From the NCBI GenBank assembly GCA_026417275.1, contig JAOADO010000043.1:1-10834 (forward strand): a DNA stretch of 10,834 nucleotides. Direction: 5' to 3'. The notes under the pieces are model-generated. The model was not told the origin of the DNA, did not search any database, and worked only from the letters and a program-made list of their open reading frames with translations. This document shows positions 814-10,834 of the stretch, in pieces. The position numbers were made by a program, and so were the translations under genes. This DNA comes from Verrucomicrobiia bacterium. GTDB lineage: Bacteria; Verrucomicrobiota; Verrucomicrobiae; Limisphaerales; JAKPVM01. The first letter of the stretch is position 1, and each line of letters begins with the position of its first letter.

Positions 814-1422
814 ATGAATGGTAATTATACAGACATAATTGATGATCTTGGCTTTTTGAGCAAACCAAGACCATTATTGTGGCTGAGTGCGGCAATTCTT
901 ATTCTTTTAATTATTTACCTGGTTTACAAACTGCGTAAAAGACACAGGAAAACTTCTTCTTTAGATAAATCGCAAAAGTCTGCTCAAGAAGAAGCGTATG
1001 TAGACGCTCTTGCCGAACTTGAAAAATTGCGTTCAAGAATGTCACGAGAAAATTCGCGCGTCTACGCAATTGAGGCTTCAGCGATTGTCAGAAAATACAT
1101 AGAACAACGGTTTATGATTTGTGCGCCAATGCGTTCAACGGAAGAGTTTTTTATCGAAGCACAGAAAAGCGATAAACTGGATGAATCCGATAGAAAAGTT
1201 TTGAATGAATTTCTTTCCGCCTGCGACTTTTTAAAATTCGCAAAAGCATGGGCAGAGATGGATGAACTGGGGAAAATTCACAGCCTTGCCGTAGAATTTG
1301 TCAAAAAGACGCATAACCATACCCCGCAACAGGCAAACACAGAAAATCCGACTGAAAATGTTAAAACAAATCAAGTCAAACCAGTTGCTTCAATCAACAC
1401 AGCAAAAAGTGCATCAACATGA
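814..1422 (+). CDS. One-helix membrane protein with DUF4381/BatD-tail-like domain
   Basis: This is a 202-residue protein. Residues 20-39 form one hydrophobic helix (LLWLSAAILILLIIYLVYKL) followed by a basic stretch (RKRHRK), so the C-terminal part should be cytoplasmic. Residues 62-166 form a helical domain with IEASAIVRKYIEQRF, a TEEF motif and CDFLKFAKA, a pattern I associate with DUF4381 proteins and the C-terminal tail of BatD. The last 35 residues are Asn/Thr/Lys-rich and probably disordered. The gene sits between the DUF58 gene and the first VWA gene, where such proteins are common in Bat-type clusters, and its stop overlaps the next start as ATGA. A GGAA only 5 nt before the ATG is a poor ribosome site. 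It may do part of the job of BatD, whose large periplasmic region is not encoded here. The domain assignment is from memory of motifs, not from a search. Confidence 0.8.
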   Translation: MNGNYTDIIDDLGFLSKPRPLLWLSAAILILLIIYLVYKLRKRHRKTSSLDKSQKSAQEEAYVDALAELEKLRSRMSRENSRVYAIEASAIVRKYIEQRFMICAPMRSTEEFFIEAQKSDKLDESDRKVLNEFLSACDFLKFAKAWAEMDELGKIHSLAVEFVKKTHNHTPQQANTENPTENVKTNQVKPVASINTAKSAST

Positions 1423-2390
1423 ACGAGTTCTTAGTGCAAATTAAAACTTTCAGGTTTGAGTGCTGGTATTTGCTGGGACTGTTGGTTTTATTACCGTTGT
1501 GGGCATACCTGAAAGGTAAGTTTGGCAGGGCGCCTGCGATTCAATTTTCCTCTTCTGAACTTATAAAGCCTTCCGGGAAAAATCCGAAAACAACGGCTGG
1601 CAAAATTTTGTTCTACATTCGATTAATCTCCCTTGGTTTATTAATCTTAGCCATAGCAAAACCACAGGTAGAGAAAGGACTTTCCGATTACGAGGCAAAA
1701 GGCATAAACATAATGCTCGCTCTTGATTTCTCTGGAACAATGAAAAAACGTGACTTTATGATGGGAAACAAGCGAGTGACGCGGGCGGAGGCGTTAATTG
1801 AAGTAATAAGCGAATTTATGCGTGCTCGGGAAAACGATAAAATCGGCATTGTTCGCTACGACGCAGACGCATATCTTGTAAGCCCGCTGACCCTTGACCA
1901 CGATTGGTTAATTCAAAGACTACGAACAGAAAAGAATGGGCGTGGAACAGCCCCCGGCTCTGCGATGTTAATCGCCGCAGAACACCTTATTCCCGCAACC
2001 AATCAAACAAAAGTTATAATCATTGTTACAGATGCCGAGCAAGTTAACAATGGTCCATCGCCAGAAGAAGTCGCCCGCGCAATTGCTCCGATTGGAATTC
2101 GAGTCCACGTAATTCAGGTTGTTGATTTCAAAGATATGGCTTCGCTTGACCTTTCCTGGAATGAAATGGCTCAGGTTCCAAAACTTACAGGCGGGCAATT
2201 CTTCCAGGTCGCGGATTTTCAGGGATTGCGCAATGTTTATCATCAAATTGACCTGCTCGAAAAAGCCACTTTCACCGAAGGCAAACAACGGTCATATAAA
2301 GAACTTATGGGCTGGTTTGCATTTCCAGGATTGTTTTTCTTAATTATTGAAATTTTGCTCGCGCAAACGGTTTTAAGACGGTTGCCATGA
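1419..2390 (+). CDS. batA: VWA-domain membrane protein, BatA-like
   Basis: This 323-residue protein has the BatA layout. Two N-terminal helices lie at about 17-31 and 62-80, the second ending in the typical AIAKPQ. A VWA domain spans about 95-280, and a C-terminal helix lies at 298-319. The metal-ion-dependent adhesion site reads DFSGT (D103, S105, T107), with T177 in GTAPG and D205 in VTDAEQ. The usual third Ser is Thr, and TDG is TDA. Family knowledge: BatA and BatB are inner-membrane VWA proteins linked to stress or aerotolerance in Bacteroides and Leptospira-type operons, with no enzymatic reaction assigned. Translation is probably coupled: its ATG overlaps the preceding stop and its own stop overlaps the next start, both as ATGA. 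The symbol follows operon position and architecture. The two VWA paralogues could be named in either order. Confidence 0.88.
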   Translation: MNEFLVQIKTFRFECWYLLGLLVLLPLWAYLKGKFGRAPAIQFSSSELIKPSGKNPKTTAGKILFYIRLISLGLLILAIAKPQVEKGLSDYEAKGINIMLALDFSGTMKKRDFMMGNKRVTRAEALIEVISEFMRARENDKIGIVRYDADAYLVSPLTLDHDWLIQRLRTEKNGRGTAPGSAMLIAAEHLIPATNQTKVIIIVTDAEQVNNGPSPEEVARAIAPIGIRVHVIQVVDFKDMASLDLSWNEMAQVPKLTGGQFFQVADFQGLRNVYHQIDLLEKATFTEGKQRSYKELMGWFAFPGLFFLIIEILLAQTVLRRLP

Positions 2391-3454
2391 AATTTTATAA
2401 TTCATACATTTTACTGCTTGCGCCTATATTGATTATAGGAATGGCGCTCCTCTATTATTTTGCGAACAAAACCCGCAATAAACTCCTCACCCAGATTGTC
2501 TCACCAAGACTTATCAATAACCTTTTAAACTCGGTTAACTACAGAACAAGAAAATTAAAAATCCTTCTTATGTCGACGGGTTTAATTTTTCTTGTTATTG
2601 CGCTGGCACGTCCACTTGGCAACGAAAAGGAGGTTTTAATAGAAAAACCGGGCATTGACGCGATAATAGCACTTGACCTTTCAAAATCAATGGAGGCAGA
2701 AGACGCCGTGATTGAAAGAGGAATAATCACAAACCGACTGAGCGCCGCAAAATATGCCATCAAACGGATTTTGCAGACGCCATCCAATCATAGATATGGA
2801 CTTGTTGCTTTTTCCGGCGAATCTTTCATGATAGCGCCAGTAACGCTTGACCATGGTTCAATAATCCGTTCCGCAGAAGCCCTAAAAACATCTTCAATCT
2901 CTAAGCCGGGGACAGACATTGCCGCGGCAATTAAAAAGGCATCTGAAGTTTTTGACCCAAAGAAAAAATCCGCAAAGGCGATAGTTTTAATTACAGACGG
3001 AGAACAACTTCAAGGCGACGCTGTGATTGCCGCGCGCGAGGCTGCGGGCGTAAACAATATAAAAATCTTTACCGTTGGGGTTGGTACCACTGTTGGTTCA
3101 AAAATACCAGAACGTTCAAAAGGACGTTTCCAGTATGCAAAAAATGAACTTGGAACAGAAATTGTTTCAAAATTAAATGAAAATGTGATGAAACAAATCG
3201 CCTCGGCTGGCGGTGGATATTACATGCGGCTCGGCAATGAAGGTGAAGGGTTATTAGATATAGTCGAACGTGGTTTCAAAACAATTCCGGCGGATATTCA
3301 GACAAGAAAATCAAAAGACAGGATTGAATTATTTCAGATTCCGCTTATGATAGCCCTGTGTATTTTCCTTATTGAACCATTGATAAATGAACGAAACAAA
3401 CAAACCACCCACAACGCGGAGCGCAAGAATGCTCAGAATATTAATACTCATTAA
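2387..3454 (+). CDS. batB: VWA-domain membrane protein, BatB-like
   Basis: This 355-residue paralogue of the preceding gene has helices at about 6-25, 58-76 (ending ALARP) and 313-333, with a VWA domain at about 90-300. The metal site is canonical: DLSKS (D97, S99, S101), T176 in PGTD, and D204 in ITDGEQ. This makes it the more standard of the two VWA proteins here. The C-terminus after the last helix is a hydrophilic tail of about 20 residues. It lies in the same DNA as the start region of the TPR gene, so the tail may exist partly because of that overlap. The start overlaps the previous stop as ATGA. Family knowledge places such proteins in the inner membrane with the VWA domain probably periplasmic, acting with BatA and a TPR partner. 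The exact role is unknown. Confidence 0.88.
   Translation: MKFYNSYILLLAPILIIGMALLYYFANKTRNKLLTQIVSPRLINNLLNSVNYRTRKLKILLMSTGLIFLVIALARPLGNEKEVLIEKPGIDAIIALDLSKSMEAEDAVIERGIITNRLSAAKYAIKRILQTPSNHRYGLVAFSGESFMIAPVTLDHGSIIRSAEALKTSSISKPGTDIAAAIKKASEVFDPKKKSAKAIVLITDGEQLQGDAVIAAREAAGVNNIKIFTVGVGTTVGSKIPERSKGRFQYAKNELGTEIVSKLNENVMKQIASAGGGYYMRLGNEGEGLLDIVERGFKTIPADIQTRKSKDRIELFQIPLMIALCIFLIEPLINERNKQTTHNAERKNAQNINTH
3418..3421 (+). promoter_or_regulatory. Shine-Dalgarno that decides the TPR gene start
   Basis: A GGAG lies 7 nt before the ATG at 3429, a standard spacing. The in-frame ATG at 3387 has no such site. Starting at 3429 also puts a clean hydrophobic signal sequence at the very N-terminus. 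It is one of only two clear ribosome sites in the window, the other being the Rieske gene's. Confidence 0.6.
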
Positions 3455-5003
3455 CATCATTTTATTCTCCTGTTACGGTCTCGTGGCACAAACATTGAAT
3501 GACGCGCGCAGGATGATGGATGAAAACCGTCCGCAGGATGCGGCTAAACTTCTGCGCGAACTGGTCAAAAACAATCCCGCAGACCCATGGTTGCTGTACA
3601 ACCTTGGCGTGGCGGAATACGGTTCAAAAAATTACGAGGAGGCAGACCGAATCTGGGAAGAACTCGCCGCTTCAACACTACCCAAAAAACTTCAGACACG
3701 CGTCTGGACGCAAATCGGCAATGTTTCGTTCCGAAAAGGAGAACCGCTTGAAAACTCCGCGCCGGAACAGGCTCTGCCGCATTACGAACAAAGCCGCGAG
3801 GCTTATAAAATTGCCCTTGCTCCAAATCCAAACGACAAACTTGCGCAATATAACCTGAAAGTAGTCGAACAAAGGCTTGCAAAAATCCATGCAACTCTTG
3901 CAAAAAAATTACTTCAACAAACAAAAAACACGTCTCTTAAAGAAACAATAGAAAAAACCGAAGCCGCTCTCGACCACCAGCGAACAGCGGTAAATCTTGT
4001 CCCGGAAAATAAAGAATACGCAAACGATGTTAAACAAACTGAAAATAACCTTTCAAACCTTCTCACAAAACGGGCTGAACAAGCCGAACAAAGAGCGGAT
4101 AACGCGGTAAAAAATCCGAATTCTCCCAGATGGGAACGCGAACAAGCCATTAAAAACCTTGAAAATGCCCTCACGGATTTTCGCGAAGCCGCAAATTTAA
4201 ACAAGGAAAACCAACAGGCAAAAACAGGCGAAGAACGAGTTCTTGAAAAATTATCCAATCTTTTAACAAAAAACGCCAACGAACTTAAGAAGGAAGCAGA
4301 CCGTGAAGCCTCATGGAATCCTGATGAAGCAATTTCCAAATACGAAAACGCAATCGACAACTATGACCAGGCACTTCAATTGAACCAGAATAATCAAACA
4401 GCTCAGACGGGACGTGAAGAAACCAGAGAAGCGCTCGAAAAACTGCTCATGAAACAGGGCGATAAACTCGCTCAAGAAGGAAGAAACAAGAAGGAAAATA
4501 ATCCTGCCGAAGCCGCTGAAAAAATGATGCAGGCGTTGAACAATTATGAACACGCGATAGAAGTGAACCCATCTAATACTGAAGCGCCACCTAAAATTGA
4601 AGCAATCGAAAAAGAACTACCCCCTCTCTTAATTGCCCTTGGCAAACGCGAGCAACAACGCGCCGCTCAGGAAGAACAAAAAACACCGGAAAAAGCCGTG
4701 GCTCACCTGGAAAAAGCCGCCACAAGTTTCGACCTTGCCCAACAGATCGAACAGAATAATCACGAAGCAGAACAACTGGCAGAACAAACAAGAAAAGACC
4801 TCTTGAGATTGCGCGAAAAACTTGCTCAGATGGCTCAACAGAAAAACCAGCAACAGCAAAAAAACAATCAATACACGCATGACTTCCAGACCATGCTCGG
4901 CTGGGTAAAAAACGACGATAAACAACGCGAATACGAAGAATCTCGCCGTAGTCCCACTACAAAATACACCCCGCAAAATGATAAAATTTATAAAAACTGG
5001 TAA
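3429..5003 (+). CDS. batC: Exported TPR-repeat protein, BatC-like
   Basis: With the start at 3429 this is 524 residues; an in-frame ATG at 3387 would add 14. Residues 1-21 form a signal-like segment with hydrophobic core ILILINIILF. It may be cleaved after LVA-20, or be a lipoprotein signal around LFSC-15, although Phe at -2 is not ideal. A canonical TPR follows at about 47-80 (NPADPWLLYNLG to EEADRIWEELA), with a second at about 95-140. From residue 182 the protein is an array of TPR-like units starting at 182, 250, 311, 372 and 433, that is 68 and then three times exactly 61 residues. The last 60 residues are Gln-rich, then a tail ending in Trp. The start overlaps the BatB gene by 26 nt. 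Family knowledge: BatC-type TPR proteins work beside the VWA proteins, probably as periplasmic scaffolds. The binding partner is unknown. Confidence 0.85.
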   Translation: MLRILILINIILFSCYGLVAQTLNDARRMMDENRPQDAAKLLRELVKNNPADPWLLYNLGVAEYGSKNYEEADRIWEELAASTLPKKLQTRVWTQIGNVSFRKGEPLENSAPEQALPHYEQSREAYKIALAPNPNDKLAQYNLKVVEQRLAKIHATLAKKLLQQTKNTSLKETIEKTEAALDHQRTAVNLVPENKEYANDVKQTENNLSNLLTKRAEQAEQRADNAVKNPNSPRWEREQAIKNLENALTDFREAANLNKENQQAKTGEERVLEKLSNLLTKNANELKKEADREASWNPDEAISKYENAIDNYDQALQLNQNNQTAQTGREETREALEKLLMKQGDKLAQEGRNKKENNPAEAAEKMMQALNNYEHAIEVNPSNTEAPPKIEAIEKELPPLLIALGKREQQRAAQEEQKTPEKAVAHLEKAATSFDLAQQIEQNNHEAEQLAEQTRKDLLRLREKLAQMAQQKNQQQQKNNQYTHDFQTMLGWVKNDDKQREYEESRRSPTTKYTPQNDKIYKNW

Positions 5004-5347: not shown

Positions 5348-5351
5348 ATGA
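5271..5351 (+). CDS. Possible 26-codon leader ORF overlapping the next start
   Basis: An ATG at 5271 opens 26 codons (MEGSSCDFILTHSLKYMHIV to 20 residues, then six more). They end in a TGA that overlaps the ATG at 5348 as ATGA, the same arrangement used twice in the Bat genes upstream. The downstream gene has no Shine-Dalgarno sequence, so coupled re-initiation would explain how it is translated. Against this, the leader ORF also lacks a ribosome site and the peptide resembles nothing I know. Confidence 0.22.
   Translation: MEGSSCDFILTHSLKYMHIVIHNSTL
5316..5339. repeat. Two abutting palindromes before the start codon
   Basis: TATATGCATATA (5316-5327) is a perfect 12-base palindrome. It is followed directly by GTTAT-AC-ATAAC (5328-5339), ending 8 nt before the ATG at 5348. 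They lie where the ribosome site should be. They could be protein-binding sites or small RNA hairpins affecting initiation, but AT-rich palindromes of this size also arise by chance. Confidence 0.4.
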
Positions 5352-6454
5352 ATGCGTTTCCAGCAGTTGACCCAATACCATTGCCAGCGCCAGTAGAACT
5401 CTTTAAAATATTGCACAACGTTACTCTTGCCCTTCACTTTATCGCTGTCCAGATGGTTATCGGCGGACTCTTAATTTCGATTGTCATTGGTTTTCTTGCA
5501 CGTAATTCAAATGGCGATCGCACGCTTCAAAGGAAATCCGTAGCCGAAGCGCTCGCGACACGGTTGCCAGTGGCGATGACATATCTCATCAATTTCGGCG
5601 TTCCTCCACTTTTGTTTCTTCAGGTTCTTTATGGAAGACAATTTTACACAAGCAGTGTGTTGATTGGCATGTTCTGGATTGCTGTCATCTTTTTACTCAT
5701 GGGCGCATACTTTCACTTATACCGATACGCGGGAGACTTTGAGATTAAGAAAATATCGTGGTGGAAAGCGCTTGTTGCGTTTGTTCTTATAATTGCAATC
5801 GCGAAGATTTACTCGACTGTAATGACCTTGATGTTGCGTCCCGAGGTGTGGCAAAAGATGTATGCAACATCGACTGCTGGAGTAAAACTTCCACCACACG
5901 ATCCAACACTTCTGCCGCGCTGGTTGTTTATGATTACTGGCGGGCTTGTAGCTGGCGGACTCTGGATGATATGGCTCACAGGTTCAAAGAATGTTGAAGA
6001 AGCGGCGAAACCTTACTTTTCATCTCTTGGCGGAAAGGTTGCCGCTGTCGGTGTCATTTTGCATGTTCTGACGGGTATTTTGGCAATTAAAGCACAACCG
6101 CCAGCAGTTTACGCTTCTTTAAATTCAAACGCGTTGTTCAAAGCAGCTGGCTTTATCTGGGGAGCGGCGATGCTCGGCATCCTTGTTTTCAGCATCTGGC
6201 GAGGTGCTGGCGGAAAGCCGTCTCGTTTCATTGGACTTATTCTGATATTCGTAGGAACACTTGGCGCTGTTGTTTGCCGCGATGGCATTCGCGACATTAC
6301 GCTGGTCCAAAAAGGATTCAACGTAATGGAAAGAACAATTTACACAAACTGGTATGTCGTAGGAATTTTCTTAATCACATTTGTTGTGGGGTTAGTGGCT
6401 GTGGGGTGGTTAATCTCAGTAATGATGAGGGCAAAACAAATTAGCCAAAAATGA
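5348..6454 (+). CDS. CydA-like (cytochrome bd-type) membrane subunit
   Basis: This 368-residue protein has about nine membrane helices (roughly 25-50, 72-95, 102-126, 138-163, 188-212, 229-247, 265-285, 291-309 and 334-359), the number found in CydA. By-eye comparison with E. coli CydA and with the paralogue at 8188 places H30 (LHFIAVQMVIGG) on CydA His19, and R315-D316 on the segment holding haem ligand Glu445. M195 falls where haem b558 ligand His186 should be. The N-terminus also has H23. The quinol-binding Q loop and the GRQPW signature are absent, so it is probably not a quinol oxidase. It leads the operon with Rieske, cytochrome b and CydA-like/cytochrome c genes and is probably a haem-bearing or structural subunit of their complex. 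The start is fixed by a stop codon three codons upstream; no Shine-Dalgarno is visible. Confidence 0.72.
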   Translation: MNAFPAVDPIPLPAPVELFKILHNVTLALHFIAVQMVIGGLLISIVIGFLARNSNGDRTLQRKSVAEALATRLPVAMTYLINFGVPPLLFLQVLYGRQFYTSSVLIGMFWIAVIFLLMGAYFHLYRYAGDFEIKKISWWKALVAFVLIIAIAKIYSTVMTLMLRPEVWQKMYATSTAGVKLPPHDPTLLPRWLFMITGGLVAGGLWMIWLTGSKNVEEAAKPYFSSLGGKVAAVGVILHVLTGILAIKAQPPAVYASLNSNALFKAAGFIWGAAMLGILVFSIWRGAGGKPSRFIGLILIFVGTLGAVVCRDGIRDITLVQKGFNVMERTIYTNWYVVGIFLITFVVGLVAVGWLISVMMRAKQISQK

Positions 6455-6485
6455 GTTTTGTAAAAAGTCAACCACTGAACCTTAC

Positions 6486-6490
6486 AGGAG
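6486..6490 (+). promoter_or_regulatory. Shine-Dalgarno of the Rieske gene
   Basis: An AGGAG lies 10 nt before the ATG at 6501. It is the strongest ribosome site in the window, in an operon whose other starts have none that I can see. Confidence 0.6.
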
Positions 6491-6500
6491 AATTCAAAAC

Positions 6501-6995
6501 ATGGCGAACGAGACAAAAATAGATAAACTCGACACAGTTCAGGTTGCAAATCAAGAGGCTCTTCCAAGACGCGCCTTTGGGAAAATCGCCCTTGGCGCGG
6601 CTGGATTGTGTTATCTGGCAATGCTCGGTTATCCGCTTTATAGATATTTATCCAGCCCTGTCGAAAAAGCCAAAAAAGAGGCGGCGGTTAAAGAGATTTT
6701 ATTAAAGGACGCCCATAAATTGCCCGCTGGCAGTGGCATGGTTTTCAAATTTGGTTCAAGACCTGCCTGGTTAATTCATCACGCAGATGGCACATGGACA
6801 GCGCTGGACGCTGTGTGCACACACCTTGGTTGCACTGTTAAATACGAGGCAGAAAACAAGCGGATTTTCTGCGAATGTCACGGCGGTGTTTACGATCCGA
6901 TCACGGGTAAGAATATTGCTGGTCCACCACCCAAACCATTGCGTCAATACACGATTAAAGTAACCGAAGAGGGCGTTGTCGTATCACGAGCGTAA
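6501..6995 (+). CDS. Rieske [2Fe-2S] protein of a cytochrome b complex
   Basis: This 164-residue protein has a Tat-type anchor: R23-R24 in LPRRAFGKIALGAAG, then a hydrophobic helix at about 27-49 that is probably retained as the membrane anchor. The soluble domain carries both cluster boxes. Box 1 is CTHLGC (ligands C106, H108) and box 2 is CECHGG (ligands C124, H127), with C111 and C126 placed for the usual disulfide. The Pro loop GPPPKPL (141-147) is present. Box 2 has Gly where high-potential Rieske proteins have Ser (CPCHGS). Y131 sits where the conserved cluster-tuning Tyr is found. Loss of the Ser contact is known to lower the potential, which suits a menaquinol substrate. In function it takes one electron from quinol at the cytochrome b outer site and passes it to the complex's c haem, here most likely that of the 8188 gene product. 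The length is normal for a compact bacterial Rieske protein. Confidence 0.95.
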   Translation: MANETKIDKLDTVQVANQEALPRRAFGKIALGAAGLCYLAMLGYPLYRYLSSPVEKAKKEAAVKEILLKDAHKLPAGSGMVFKFGSRPAWLIHHADGTWTALDAVCTHLGCTVKYEAENKRIFCECHGGVYDPITGKNIAGPPPKPLRQYTIKVTEEGVVVSRA

Positions 6996-7023
6996 AGATT
7001 TAAACCAACAAGATTTTCATACA

Positions 7024-8172
7024 ATGAAAGCCGCAGTAAAACAGATATATAACTGGCTGGATGAACGAGTTGGATTAAACGAACTTGTCGAATTTGCAAA
7101 AAAGAAAACTGTTCCCGAACACAAACACACCTTCTGGTATTACTGGGGCGGGATTTCTCTTTTGTTTTTCATAATACAGGCATTTACCGGCGCGCTCTTG
7201 CTGATTTATTATCGTCCCGGACCGGAGGCGTATGAATCCGTCCGCCAGATTACTTATGAGATTCAATTTGGATGGCTTATTCGCTCCATTCACTCATGGG
7301 CGGCAAACCTGATGATTCTTGCGGTGTTCATCCACATGCTTTCTGTGTACTTCATGAAGGCTTATCGCAAACCGCGCGAACTTGGCTGGTTAAGCGGAAT
7401 TGCCCTCTTGATGCTTGCAATGTTTTTTGGCTTCAGCGGATACCTTTTGCCAATGGATGAACTCGCCTATTTTGCCACAAAAGTGGGACTCGAAGTACCA
7501 GCCGCTCCAACTGATGCTCTTGGAGGAATACTGGCAAATATGCTCGGCGCTGTTGGGATTAAAGCGGATTGGTTAAGAACGATTGGCACTGAATTATCCT
7601 CGCTTATCCGCGGCGGCGTTGAGGTCAATGAATACACAGTGCAACGGTTTTTTGCCCTTCATGTTGTACTTTTGCCGGCAATTTTTCTCGGCGTTTTAGG
7701 ATTTCACCTCTGGCTTGTGCAAAAACACGGAAACGCAATTCCGCCATCTGAAGAAGCCAAGCCGCTATCTGAAAGGAAATCTGTGCCGTTTTTCCCGAAT
7801 TTTTTTATGCGTGACCTTGCAATGTGGCTTGTTGCGTTGAACGTTCTTATTCTGCTTGCCGCAATGTTTCCGTGGGAACTTGGACAGCCAGCGGACCCGC
7901 TGAAACCCGCACCCGCAGGTATCCATCCCGAGTGGTATTTCATGAGTTCATTCCAGGTACTTAAGGCGCTCGGCTCATGGTTCCCTGGCATCACAGGCGA
8001 AATACTTGGCATGGTGATATTTACAGCAGGTCTGATTTTGTGGGTTTTGATTCCGTTCTACGATAACACGAATCAAAGCGGCAAGCGGGCGCGACGCGCC
8101 ACATGGTTTGGGCTATTCACGCTCGCTGTTTTGGTAATAACAACAATCTGGGGTTATCTGGCTTTAAAATAA
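7024..8172 (+). CDS. Cytochrome b, b6 plus subunit IV in one chain
   Basis: Starting at the ATG at 7024 it has 382 residues; an in-frame TTG at 6976 would overlap the Rieske gene and add 16 non-conserved residues. The b6-like half has helices at about 41-63, 92-112, 124-144 and 211-232. Its haem ligand pairs are H90/H104 and H213/H228, and the 14 and 15 spacing matches b6 rather than bc1. The subunit IV-like half has three helices (about 265-282, 327-345, 361-381) and the quinol-site motif PEWY (302-305). The segment between helices 3 and 4 is about 22 residues longer than in plant b6. The position of the b6 haem c_i cysteine is Y40, so that extra haem is probably absent. The protein oxidises menaquinol at the outer face and returns one electron across the membrane. 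The gene lies 28 nt after the Rieske gene and 15 nt before the next. Confidence 0.95.
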   Translation: MKAAVKQIYNWLDERVGLNELVEFAKKKTVPEHKHTFWYYWGGISLLFFIIQAFTGALLLIYYRPGPEAYESVRQITYEIQFGWLIRSIHSWAANLMILAVFIHMLSVYFMKAYRKPRELGWLSGIALLMLAMFFGFSGYLLPMDELAYFATKVGLEVPAAPTDALGGILANMLGAVGIKADWLRTIGTELSSLIRGGVEVNEYTVQRFFALHVVLLPAIFLGVLGFHLWLVQKHGNAIPPSEEAKPLSERKSVPFFPNFFMRDLAMWLVALNVLILLAAMFPWELGQPADPLKPAPAGIHPEWYFMSSFQVLKALGSWFPGITGEILGMVIFTAGLILWVLIPFYDNTNQSGKRARRATWFGLFTLAVLVITTIWGYLALK

Positions 8173-8187
8173 CAGTATTTTAATATT

Positions 8188-9585
8188 ATGAACTATCCGG
8201 TCTGGGAAGTACCACATATTGGAAGTGGTTGGGTAATCGGGATCATCGCCATATTTCACGTGATGATTTCCCACTTTGCCGTTGGCGGAGGCTTTTATCT
8301 GCCGCTTGCCGAACGAAAAGCGCTGATTGAAGGCAGACGCGATTGGCTGGAAATGTTAAAGCGCCACGCAAAATTTTTCCTTGTTCTGACAGGCGTTTTT
8401 GGAGCAGTATCCGGCGTTGGCATCTGGTTCGCCATCGGACTTGCCCATCCCGAAGCCACAAGTGCGCTCATTCATAACTTCGTATTTGCGTGGGCAACAG
8501 AGTGGGTATTCTTCCTTGTCGAACTTTCGACAATCGCTGTTTACTACTATTCATGGAATCGAATCTCCGATGAACTGCATTTAAAGGTCGGCTGGCTCTA
8601 TGCAGTAGCATCTATTATGACCCTTTTCATCATTAACGGCATTCTCACGTTCATGTTGACTCCTGGACAGGCATGGCTTTCTGTGGCAGGCAGCGGAACT
8701 GAACCGAGCAAGTTCTTTCCCGCGTTTTTCAATCCCACATTTTGGCCAAGCCTGTTTTTAAGAACTGCTGTTTGTGCGGCGCTCGCTGGTGTCTGGGCGC
8801 TTGTCACAGCAAGCCGTCTACCAATGGCAGACGCCAAACAACAAGCGTTGAGAGCCGAAGTTATCCGCTACAGTTCAAAATGGGTCTTTACTGCATTCGT
8901 TGCAATTCCATTCTTTTTCCTCTGGTATCTGTATCAAGTTCCTGAATCGCATCGGATTCTCCTCACGCTTGGCGCTTCATCTATTGGACAGGGCATGTTC
9001 ACTCAGCTCACGCGGACAGTTGTAATACTTGTGGCAAGTTCAGTGTTAATCGCCGGCGTGGTGTATTTTCTGGCATACAGGTCAGCAGAAAGTTTTAAAT
9101 TCTCGAGCGCCGTGGTTATCGTTATACTTGCCCTGTTTGCAACTGCATCCGGCGAATACGCACGCGAAATGCTCCGCAAACCGTATGTGATTTCCGGCTA
9201 CATGTATTCAAACGGGGTTCGCGTCAGTAAAGTGAAATACCTTAATTCATCTGGATATCTGAACTCATCAAAATGGTTTGTCGGCGCGGATATTAACTCT
9301 GTGATTGCAAAAGGTAAGACAATGTATCTTGGACAATGTGCTTCGTGTCACACCACAGACGGCTATCGCTCTCTTAAACGACTCCTTGCTGGAAGAGACG
9401 AACAGGGGATTATGAACATCCTCAAAGTCCTTCACGAAAATAAAGACGACTCGCCATATAAAGCCTACATGCCACCGCTCACGGGAAAAGATGATGAAAT
9501 AAAAGCACTCTCATCTTACCTTTTTACACTCGTTCAAAAACAAGAACCTTCGACCAATGTAATCAAGACAGCAGTCAATAAGTAA
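8188..9585 (+). CDS. CydA-like membrane protein fused to cytochrome c domain
   Basis: This 465-residue protein has two parts. Residues 1-335 are CydA-like, with about eight or nine helices. H24 in FHVMISHFAVGGG aligns with CydA His19, E112 in WVFFLVELS with Glu107, and E327 in REMLRKPY with Glu445 of the GRQPW region. VPESH (E253) resembles the GDESG motif, but no Q loop follows. R192 occupies the place of haem b558 ligand His186. Residues 365-455 form a soluble monohaem cytochrome c domain with CASCH (C384, C387, H388) and a probable axial Met, M428 in YMPPL. This domain should face the periplasm. With no c1 or f gene in the operon, its haem is the natural acceptor for the Rieske protein. 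Related bd-like proteins with c haems are known in Nitrospira and some deltaproteobacteria, from memory. There is no Shine-Dalgarno; the gene starts 15 nt after the cytochrome b stop. Confidence 0.85.
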   Translation: MNYPVWEVPHIGSGWVIGIIAIFHVMISHFAVGGGFYLPLAERKALIEGRRDWLEMLKRHAKFFLVLTGVFGAVSGVGIWFAIGLAHPEATSALIHNFVFAWATEWVFFLVELSTIAVYYYSWNRISDELHLKVGWLYAVASIMTLFIINGILTFMLTPGQAWLSVAGSGTEPSKFFPAFFNPTFWPSLFLRTAVCAALAGVWALVTASRLPMADAKQQALRAEVIRYSSKWVFTAFVAIPFFFLWYLYQVPESHRILLTLGASSIGQGMFTQLTRTVVILVASSVLIAGVVYFLAYRSAESFKFSSAVVIVILALFATASGEYAREMLRKPYVISGYMYSNGVRVSKVKYLNSSGYLNSSKWFVGADINSVIAKGKTMYLGQCASCHTTDGYRSLKRLLAGRDEQGIMNILKVLHENKDDSPYKAYMPPLTGKDDEIKALSSYLFTLVQKQEPSTNVIKTAVNK

Positions 9586-9774: not shown

Positions 9775-9894
9775 ATGACACCATTTAAAGAACAAGGAAG
9801 TGCTGACGGTCTTGTGACGTCTTTTCCAGTTCAAAAAAGATTAAAGGGGTTATTTTATCCTTCAGAGAATTTTAAAAATGAATCACAACAATAA
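9775..9894 (+). CDS. Candidate small ORF upstream of Cas10
   Basis: A 39-codon frame begins MTPFKEQGSADGLVTSF and ends in TAA at 9892-9894. It overlaps the Cas10 ATG at 9878 by 17 nt and stops one base before the alternative Cas10 ATG at 9896, which would suit coupled translation. The frame is open from 9739. Base composition rises from very AT-rich to gene-like about where the ORF begins, and the sequence has an ordinary mix of residues. I do not recognise the product. There is no Shine-Dalgarno, so it may be a remnant of a longer gene, a leader peptide, or chance. Confidence 0.28.
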   Translation: MTPFKEQGSADGLVTSFPVQKRLKGLFYPSENFKNESQQ

Positions 9895-10834
9895 TATGAC
9901 AACTAATGTAGAATTCTGGAAACAGAAATTAGCCGCGTTTTTGCATGACCCACCCAGTAAATGTCTGGATTTATCGTCTCATGGAAAAAGAGCAGAACAG
10001 GCATACAGACAGGCTGGATTAATTGATGAAGAGGTGGGAAAATATCTAAAAGATGCTGATCATATATCTGCAGCGGCTGACAGGATACCGTTCCCGTCGC
10101 CATCAGGTAGCGGCATGCGTTGTGCATTCGACGGGGTGAAAAATTGCTTCATTCACCCATTAGGAAATAAACAGGGTGAAAAATTGACTTTTAAATTTCA
10201 CAAAGAATTTCCTTCCGCTGAACTTGCAATCGAAGGTGAAAATTCGGTTCAACCATGTTTAGAACAAAAAAGTTTGAACGAATTAAAGGACGAAGACGAA
10301 CGATGGAGAGCCAGGTTTTTTGCACACTGGCGTCTGTGGAGAAAACACGCCATTGGACATGATTACAGATTAGGATTTTTGCCCGCTGATACTCGAATAC
10401 CAGACCATTCCATCTGGCTTCATATGCAAATAGCATCGGCGGTGGCTGGATGTATTGAAAATGAAAAAATTGATATTGCTTTCCTGAAATTCCAGATTGG
10501 TCCAGTTCAAGAATTCATAGCCGCGGCAAGAAGCATAAGAGATTTGTGGAGCGGCAGTTATTTATTATCATGGCTGATGGCAAGCGGTCTAAAGGCGTTA
10601 ACCGAAGAAGTCGGACCGGATTCTGTTATTTATCCAAGTCTATATGGCCAACCGATATTTGATCTGCACTGGAGAGATGATTTATGGAACAAGGTTAAAA
10701 TTGGCAGTGAAACTGTCTGGTCCTCATTCAAATATAAAGAGGCAGAGATTCTCACTCCAAACCTTCCTAACGTATTTCTTGCGATAGTTCCTCAAAAAAG
10801 GTCCAGTGAACTGGCGAAAAAGGTTGAATCAAGG
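9878..10834 (+). CDS. cmr2: Cas10/Cmr2, type III-B CRISPR (C-terminus outside window)
   Basis: The frame is open to the right edge, giving 319 residues of a protein that usually has 600-1000. The N-terminus has the Cmr2 signature FWKQKLAAFLHDPPSK (13-28), with the HD pair H23-D24. Next come DADHISAAADRIPFP (59-73) and, at 202-231, the block FLKFQIGPVQEFI, AARS, DLWSGSYLLS that starts the first palm (cyclase-like) domain. YPSLYGQP (252-259) follows. Family knowledge: Cas10 is the large subunit of the Cmr complex. On target RNA binding its palm domains make cyclic oligoadenylates and its HD site can cut DNA; the catalytic GGDD motif would lie beyond the window. An ATG at 9896 is an alternative start. 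Neither has a strong ribosome site, only AGAG about 11 nt before 9878. Arginine is coded by AGA/AGG in 12 of 16 cases, unlike the respiratory genes. The remaining cmr genes should follow downstream. Confidence 0.93.
   Translation, partial: MNHNNNMTTNVEFWKQKLAAFLHDPPSKCLDLSSHGKRAEQAYRQAGLIDEEVGKYLKDADHISAAADRIPFPSPSGSGMRCAFDGVKNCFIHPLGNKQGEKLTFKFHKEFPSAELAIEGENSVQPCLEQKSLNELKDEDERWRARFFAHWRLWRKHAIGHDYRLGFLPADTRIPDHSIWLHMQIASAVAGCIENEKIDIAFLKFQIGPVQEFIAAARSIRDLWSGSYLLSWLMASGLKALTEEVGPDSVIYPSLYGQPIFDLHWRDDLWNKVKIGSETVWSSFKYKEAEILTPNLPNVFLAIVPQKRSSELAKKVESR

What the first reader, a model, noticed from the sequence alone, without database searches (positions are those of the whole stretch)
5348..9585. 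Rieske/cytochrome b complex bracketed by two CydA-like subunits, one carrying the c haem
The operon has a full quinol-oxidising core (Rieske plus b6/IV-type cytochrome b) but no cytochrome c1 or f. The only c haem (CASCH at residues 384-388 of the last protein) is fused to a cytochrome bd-like membrane domain, and a second bd-like protein opens the operon. The inference is that bd-type scaffolds were recruited into a bc-type complex as electron-exit modules. I recall bd-like proteins with c haems in Nitrospira and some deltaproteobacteria, so parts may be known, but this four-gene arrangement looks under-described.
Basis: partly seen in the sequence, partly recalled or inferred. Interest (0 to 1): 0.8.

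Follow-up and report, generated by a model that had tools for sequence, protein, structure and literature searches.

The report
Rieske/cytochrome b joined to bd-type oxidase
Four adjacent bacterial genes appear to encode one respiratory complex in which a quinol-oxidising Rieske/cytochrome b unit hands electrons to a haem-c-bearing relative of cytochrome bd oxidase; two of its parts even occur fused as one protein in some bacteria, so it may be an unstudied way of joining two respiratory enzymes.

Summary
Window 5348-9585 encodes a CydA paralogue (A1), a Rieske protein, b6/IV-type cytochrome b, and a CydA fused to a c-haem domain (A2c). The order A1-Rieske-cytb-A2c holds in 18 of 18 loci with enough flank (Verrucomicrobiota, Lentisphaerota, Armatimonadota). 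No cytochrome c1/f gene lies beside it. A1's CydA kinship, invisible to Pfam, rests on profile comparison and fold.

The interpretation needs changing. A2c is not just a scaffold: residues matching CydA's high-spin dihaem ligands are kept in 48/48 and 86/86 sequences (one gap), while the haem b558 ligand position is an invariant Arg. A1+A2c also occurs widely as a two-gene unit. I read it as a cytochrome-c-type bd oxygen reductase that captured a Rieske/cytb pair: quinol -> Rieske -> haem c -> dihaem -> O2.

Further support: recurrent A1::Rieske fusion proteins, one of them in a bin without detectable cytb; and heme-copper oxidase genes in these bins mostly lying near an ACIII-type gene of their own. 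Published Nitrospira and Manganitrophus clusters already pair complex III or ACIII with bd-like proteins, so this is a new variant of a known kind. Complex formation and O2 reduction are inferred.

The parts
5348..6454 (+). A1: CydA paralogue (CydA'-like), 9 predicted TM helices; keeps a TM1 His (H30) but not the two TM3 glutamates (by eye)
6501..6995 (+). Rieske [2Fe-2S] protein with RR motif and one N-terminal TM helix
   Evidence: PF00355 6e-13; C106, H108, C111, C124, C126, H127 invariant in 13/13
6816..6881 (+). Rieske cluster-binding motifs CTHLGC...CECH
6976..8172 (+). Cytochrome b (b6 plus subunit IV in one chain); TTG start at 6976 or ATG at 7024
   Evidence: PF00033/PF13631/PF00032; four haem histidines and PEWY invariant in 13/13, 14 residues between the second His pair as in b6 (recalled)
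7927..7938 (+). PEWY quinol-oxidation (Qo) motif of cytochrome b
8188..9585 (+). A2c: CydA-type subunit with 8 TM helices and C-terminal class I cytochrome c domain
9283..9543 (+). c-haem domain of A2c, predicted periplasmic (CASCH at 9337-9351, axial Met428)

Best explanation
The operon encodes one membrane complex, a quinol:O2 oxidoreductase made by joining a Rieske/cytochrome b unit to a cytochrome-c-type bd oxygen reductase. Cytochrome b oxidises quinol at Qo and recycles one electron through its two b haems. The other electron goes to the Rieske cluster, then to the c haem on A2c, which replaces cytochrome c1/f, then to the high-spin dihaem site in the membrane part of the same A2c chain, where O2 is reduced. 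A1 is the non-catalytic CydA-type partner of A2c (the place of CydB or CydA' in known bd enzymes) and the docking subunit for the Rieske protein. Shown here: gene order, ligand conservation, folds of A1 and A2c, one clade for the four-gene arrangement, similar trees of the four genes, recurrence of an A1::Rieske fusion. Inferred: that the four proteins form one complex (about 0.8), that the Rieske head reduces the c haem directly (about 0.75), that the dihaem reduces O2 with these electrons (about 0.6).
For: Order A1-Rieske-cytb-A2c in 18 of 18 loci with flank. Rieske-cytb directly 5' of A2c in 44 of 45 loci with A2c identity of 51% or more, the exception being a contig end; 8 of the 44 are seed bins seen again. 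Four-gene rows form one clade in the A2c tree (12 rows, 100/99) and the A1 tree (13 rows, 100/100); the single-gene trees of 12 members share 6 to 8 of 9 splits. Positions matching CydA's dihaem ligands (H24, E105, E112, E327, R330, by alignment to 5doq) are kept in 48/48 and 86/86 rows (one gap at H24), while the b558 His position is Arg in all. A1 lies beside A2c in 59 of 67 loci without the four-gene cluster. A1::Rieske fusion in G291 followed by A2c and six fused protein clusters; A1's predicted cytoplasmic C-terminus suits a Rieske N-terminus. A PF00115 gene lies within 6 kb of a NrfD (ACIII-type) gene in 10 of 13 HCO-bearing bins checked, so the HCO seems to have another donor; in two of the ten (G012, G386) that PF00115 hit is weak. 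Three Lentisphaerota bins with the cluster show no PF00115 hit.
Against: No biochemistry, and no multimer model, so no Rieske-to-haem-c distance. Eleven of the 12 seed bins have another O2-reductase candidate: a PF00115 oxidase in 8 (weak in G012), a full-length canonical CydA in 8, the three Lentisphaerota bins among them. In 8 of 12 the cluster holds the only cytochrome b found, so it could be the general complex III feeding cytochrome c. In G205 a five-haem ORF follows the four-gene operon directly and NrfD and PF00115 genes lie a few kb further on the same strand, which may mean electron exchange with that oxidase. In G291, with the fusion, no cytochrome b is detected, so the model's quinol entry does not apply there. 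Relatives of 35-43% identity occur in Desulfovibrio and Geobacter, recalled as anaerobes. Absences rest on bins of unknown completeness.
Confidence: 0.55

Rival explanations
1. Exit module only: the complex is a quinol:cytochrome c reductase. The c haem of A2c replaces c1/f and passes electrons to a soluble cytochrome c and on to a heme-copper oxidase; the CydA-type membrane parts are inherited structure.
For: It holds the only cytochrome b found in 8 of 12 bins, 8 of 12 have a PF00115 oxidase, and in G205 NrfD and PF00115 genes lie just downstream.
Against: Dihaem ligand positions are invariant, not expected of a relict scaffold. PF00115 genes mostly lie near a NrfD gene (10 of 13 bins). Three Lentisphaerota bins and G004 show no HCO oxidase; G004's PF00115 hit is a qNOR. 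A1+A2c occurs without Rieske/b beside it.
Confidence: 0.25
2. The dihaem of A2c reduces something other than O2 for respiration (NO, peroxide, or O2 for detoxification), with the Rieske/b unit supplying quinol electrons.
For: Stand-alone A1+A2c pairs occur in Desulfovibrio, Geobacter and relatives (recalled as anaerobes), in many with two to eight CXXCH motifs. G004 also holds a qNOR.
Against: Same ligand positions as canonical bd oxygen reductases; 8 of 12 seed bins also have a PF00115 oxidase, i.e. are likely aerobes. No direct test.
Confidence: 0.12
3. Four co-transcribed but separate enzymes: a Rieske/cytb complex and an independent bd-type oxidase that merely share an operon.
For: A1+A2c is a two-gene unit by itself elsewhere.
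Against: Rieske-cytb sits between A1 and A2c in all 18 loci with flank, no c1/f gene is nearby, trees largely agree, and A1::Rieske fusions exist.
Confidence: 0.08

Closest known systems
Cytochrome bd superfamily, OR-C/OR-N families of Murali, Gennis and Hemp 2021 (CydAA'-type bd-like oxygen reductases)
   Same: Two CydA-type paralogues and, for OR-N, cytochrome c instead of quinol as the likely donor (PMC10839748 passages); quinol-binding residues lacking in a bd-like protein of Nitrospina (PMC3578206 passages).
   Different: Here a Rieske/cytb pair sits between the two CydA genes and A2c carries its own c haem. The 2021 paper is not held, so the sub-family, and any description of this operon there, could not be checked.
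Nitrospira moscoviensis CIII_1 with bd-like_1 and bd-like_2 (PMC6606698 passages)
   Same: Rieske and cytochrome b genes in one region with two bd-like proteins; the authors suggest a III-IV supercomplex.
   Different: Larger region with several cytochrome c genes; no interleaved four-gene order or fusion in the passages read. Sequence kinship with A1/A2c was not tested.
Nitrospirales ACIII followed by OR-N5 CydAA' (PMC12342949 passages) and Manganitrophus TO_3/TO_4 (PMC9040806 passages)
   Same: A quinol-oxidising complex III-type unit encoded with a bd-like protein.
   Different: In Nitrospirales the unit is ACIII, not Rieske/cytb; [quoted passage not shown]
Cytochrome b6f / Rieske-cytochrome b complexes
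   Same: Rieske ligands, four b-haem histidines, PEWY, 14-residue His spacing.
   Different: No cytochrome f or c1 beside it; b6 and subunit IV in one chain.
Canonical cytochrome bd (CydAB)
   Same: CydA fold and dihaem ligand positions.
   Different: Arg at the b558 His position, Q-loop region not matched, c haem added, CydA-type partner in place of CydB.

Membership tests
Cytochrome bd superfamily (CydA) | CydA fold | tested here: met
Cytochrome bd superfamily (CydA) | High-spin dihaem ligand residues (TM1 His, two TM3 Glu, Glu and Arg at GRQPW) | tested here: met
   A2c H24/E105/E112/E327/R330 aligned to 5doq, kept in 48/48 and 86/86 rows, one gap. That these are the haem ligands is recalled. 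A1 keeps only the His and the Arg.
Quinol-oxidising bd (qOR family) | Haem b558 His ligand | tested here: not met
   Position is Arg in 48/48 and 86/86
OR-C / OR-N families of the bd superfamily | Placement in the 2021 phylogeny | not testable with these tools
   Paper and reference sequences not held
Rieske/cytochrome b (bc) complexes | Rieske [2Fe-2S] ligands | tested here: met
   13/13
Rieske/cytochrome b (bc) complexes | Cytochrome b with four haem His and PEWY | tested here: met
   13/13
Cytochrome b6f / bc1 | Cytochrome f or c1 encoded with Rieske/b | tested here: not met
   A2c is the only CXXCH ORF in the window and in 10 of 12 loci; L009 has one further antisense ORF, L013 is cut before the motif. 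A c1/f gene elsewhere in the bins was not searched for.
Cytochrome b6f | Covalent haem ci (Cys35 of b6) | tested here: inconclusive
   No Cys seen at that place in 13 rows, judged by eye against a recalled b6 sequence
One physical complex of the four proteins | Co-purification or structure | not testable with these tools
   Only indirect: order, trees, fusion

The most novel reading that the evidence does not exclude
A self-contained bc-bd respiratory machine: Q-cycle quinol oxidation wired through one shared c haem into a bd-type O2-reducing site, with no soluble carrier and no heme-copper enzyme. In the lineage with the fused CydA'-Rieske protein the cytochrome b has been dropped, so the Rieske protein has become a permanent subunit of a bd oxidase and takes electrons in some way other than from cytochrome b, possibly straight from quinol.
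Probability: 0.2. Interest if true: 0.85.

Novelty: new variant of a known kind. Interest (0 to 1): 0.6.

Why it matters
Known complex III-oxidase supercomplexes, as I recall them, join bc1 (or ACIII) to heme-copper oxidases through a cytochrome c. A bd-type version would raise the proton yield of bd respiration by a Q cycle while keeping the presumably high O2 affinity of bd enzymes, and would be a natural example of c1/f being replaced by a haem domain on the oxidase itself.

Tried and rejected
Own genome: none held, so the window's organism could only be judged from relatives (nearest: Verrucomicrobiota bin of L001/L013 = G012, 74 and 88% over parts of A2c).

Rejected: that A1 is unrelated to CydA. 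Against this stand the missing sequence hits. CydA and CydB share a fold: Foldseek gave CydA chains the best E-values for A1 (2.8e-5 down) but a CydB chain (9r2g_D) the highest TM-score (0.66/0.72), so A1 may stand in CydB's place; its sequence kinship is with A2c. Rejected: that G004's COX1 hit is an oxidase (it is a qNOR).

Led nowhere or weak: NCBIfam gave no match up to 1e-5 for the L091 protein. Paper searches and one by genus name surfaced no description of this operon or fusion in what I saw (listings, and passages of the papers cited). Murali 2021 and most subscription papers are not held, so absence from print is not claimed. PMC8951039 had none of the residue names searched for; PMC7618691 gave only a reference-list match; PMC11707229 and PMC5492636 gave no passage on such an operon. 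The VIA-align lists were not used to exclude any family.

Caveats on my counts: one search's 48 rows include L058, a stand-alone pair with Rieske/cytb on the other strand; its 86 'other' rows include the fusion locus, the two Rieske-cytb-A2c-A1 loci, one partial four-gene A2c (L001) and some genes fetched twice. TM boundaries were set by hand. ACIII identity was not tested gene by gene: NrfD is a broad family, and only the L089 (G001) neighbourhood was looked at with family models; the NrfD protein of G012 scored as DsrP-like there. P0178 looks like a fusion (498 aa) but has a frameshift-like stretch; it is not counted and was left as it is. G012 has A2c in two pieces on two contigs; they were not joined.

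Full report
WHAT IS THERE. The window has four same-strand ORFs, 5348-9585: A1, Rieske, cytochrome b and A2c, tightly spaced, about 340 bases after the preceding TPR gene (end 5003) and about 290 bases before a CRISPR Cmr2 gene (9878 onward). Upstream lie VWA/BatA-like genes. Pfam names Rieske, cytochrome b/b6 with its C-terminal part, and for A2c the N-terminal half of CydA plus a cytochrome c domain. A1 is unnamed in Pfam and NCBIfam and has no PDB relative by sequence, alone or as a family profile.

LIGANDS. The alignment of the A2c family profile with Geobacillus CydA (5doq) matches H24 to the TM1 His, E105 and E112 to the two TM3 Glu, and E327/R330/P332 to Glu, Arg and Pro around GRQPW. 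In one search these are kept in all 48 rows of one group and all 86 of the other, except one gap at H24. The position of the b558 His is Arg in all 134. CXXCH is kept in all, and Met428 in all but one gap. A1 keeps H30 (18/18; 74 of 75, one gap) and R315 (18/18; 75/75), and lacks the TM3 glutamates by eye. That these residues are haem ligands in canonical enzymes is recalled. Reading: A2c can carry the high-spin pair, cannot carry b558 in the known way, and has a c haem as a likely electron entry.

TOPOLOGY. With TM segments set by hand on the predicted helices, A2c has 8 TM helices, with 14 K/R in the four loops called inside and 2 in the four loops before TM8 called outside, which puts the c-haem domain outside. 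A1 has 9, with 13 inside and 7 outside, which puts its C-terminus inside.

CYTOCHROME b AND RIESKE. In 13 rows the four haem His, PEWY and the 14-residue spacing are invariant, as are the six Rieske Cys/His. Nothing marks this pair as degenerate.

NEIGHBOURHOODS. The genome scan with A2c kept the best 80 of 362 confirmed relatives. In 12 (L002-L013) the order is A1-Rieske-cytb-A2c; L001 is a contig end of the same bin as L013. In the other 67, A1 lies beside A2c in 59, and Rieske or cytb hits occur in only three (L016, L058, L080), distant or on the other strand. A2c versions in the 80 loci carry one to eight CXXCH, apart from the cut L013. Searching bins with A2c at E up to 1e-60: 4 of 194 (phylum sample of G004), 19 of 286 (class of G012) and 47 of 291 (phylum of G001, Armatimonadota). 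Searches returned 54 loci. Of these 45 have A2c identity of 51% or more; 44 show Rieske-cytb directly 5' (8 of them seed bins again) and one (L099) is a contig end; A1 is beyond the short flank in these. The other nine are six stand-alone pairs, two Rieske-cytb-A2c-A1 (L111, L112) and one A1-Rieske-A2c (L108). With longer flanks, six of six chosen four-gene loci show A1 first (total 18 of 18); of nine chosen lower-identity Armatimonadota loci, eight are stand-alone pairs and one is a contig end. G205, G210, G215 and G230 hold both a four-gene-type A2c and a separate stand-alone pair.

EVOLUTION. Four-gene rows form one clade in both A2c and A1 trees; the root is arbitrary. In a wider A2c tree the fusion row joins them (100/100), while the two Rieske-cytb-A2c-A1 loci fall elsewhere among stand-alone pairs, one of them on a long branch. 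So Rieske/cytb genes may have come beside this bd-type pair more than once. Single-gene trees of 12 members share 6-8 of 9 splits in each pairing, with weak support at some forks.

THE FUSION. L149 (bin G291) has one 569-aa frame holding A1, a linker, a TM helix and a Rieske domain with its motif, followed by A2c with all ligand positions kept. Protein search: among the 120 listed of 799 hits, six clusters (P0122-P0127) cover 98-100% of the fusion and hold a Rieske domain; one is 99% identical, five are 41-56%. P0178 is doubtful. The bin shows no cytochrome b, PF00115, CydB or NrfD, while the control genomes of these searches ring in 4 to 10 of 14. Its completeness is unknown, so these absences are weak. 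The fusion argues that Rieske and A1 are partners; the missing cytochrome b is unexplained.

WHO ELSE CAN TAKE THE ELECTRONS. In the 12 seed bins: PF00115 in 9, one of them a qNOR (G004) and one weak (G012, E 4.5e-16; ccoN-like below cut-off); canonical CydA full length in 8; CydB over cut-off in 7; the cluster's cytochrome b the only one in 8; NrfD in 8. So 11 of 12 have some other O2-reductase candidate; only G004 has none. In seven further bins PF00115 in 5, CydB over cut-off in 1 (which also included G004) and NrfD in 6. Of the 13 bins with a PF00115 oxidase candidate, NrfD lies within 6 kb of PF00115 in 10 (G002, G003, G006, G007, G010, G012, G205, G386, G524, G542; in G012 and G386 at a weak PF00115 hit). 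G001 has NrfD and an ActB-like gene on another contig. G005's second cytochrome b lies about 4 kb from its COX1. G231 has a second cytochrome b on its COX1 contig. In G205, however, a five-haem ORF follows the four-gene operon directly and the NrfD and PF00115 genes lie a few kb further on, which cuts the other way.

MECHANISM. Best supported: quinol -> Qo of cytochrome b -> Rieske -> c haem of A2c -> dihaem of A2c -> O2, with A1 as partner and Rieske dock. The first steps follow from Rieske/b biochemistry; the last two are inferred from ligand positions. The main rival is a plain quinol:cytochrome c reductase with relict CydA folds.

KNOWN KIN. Papers seen as passages: PMC6606698 (Nitrospira CIII_1 with two bd-like proteins, proposed III-IV supercomplex), PMC12342949 (ACIII directly followed by OR-N5 CydAA'), PMC9040806 (TO_3/TO_4 with complex III or ACIII-like parts), PMC10839748 (OR-N enzymes likely use cytochrome c), PMC3578206 (bd-like oxidase lacking quinol residues), PMC13189123 (qOR/OR-C/OR-N classes). 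So complex III-type units beside bd-like proteins are known in gene clusters; the interleaved four-gene form with the c haem on CydA, its spread and the A1::Rieske fusion were not met in these passages.

HOST FOR TESTS. L148 lies on a 4,726,914-base contig, the same length as the longest contig of protein P0120, named Fontisphaera persica by its source, so this species probably carries the operon; the match by length is indirect.

Noticed in passing
L149:3126-4832 (-), P0122-P0127: CydA'-Rieske fusion proteins (554-569 aa); in G291 no cytochrome b is found in the bin.
   Followed up: partly
L015, L023, L026, L041 and others (A2c relatives of about 845-896 aa): In Desulfobacterota and Bacteroidales A2c is extended by a C-terminal part with up to seven further CXXCH motifs; Geobacter/Desulfuromonas-type versions carry one to three extra motifs.
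   Followed up: no
L150:888-6974 and L151:1920-6094: A second arrangement, Rieske-cytb-A2c-A1; in L150 ORFs with nine and four CXXCH lie upstream.
   Followed up: partly
L091:3241-5517: Quinol-type nitric oxide reductase (PDB 3ayf E 5e-167) in bin G004, which has the four-gene cluster and no other oxidase found.
   Followed up: yes
L085, L086, L087: A different cytochrome b neighbourhood with 6- or 8-haem cytochromes in the same bins as the four-gene cluster.
   Followed up: no
window 9878-10834: Start of a type III-B CRISPR Cas10/Cmr2 gene directly downstream of the operon.
   Followed up: no
window 814-5003: BatA-like VWA and TPR genes upstream.
   Followed up: no
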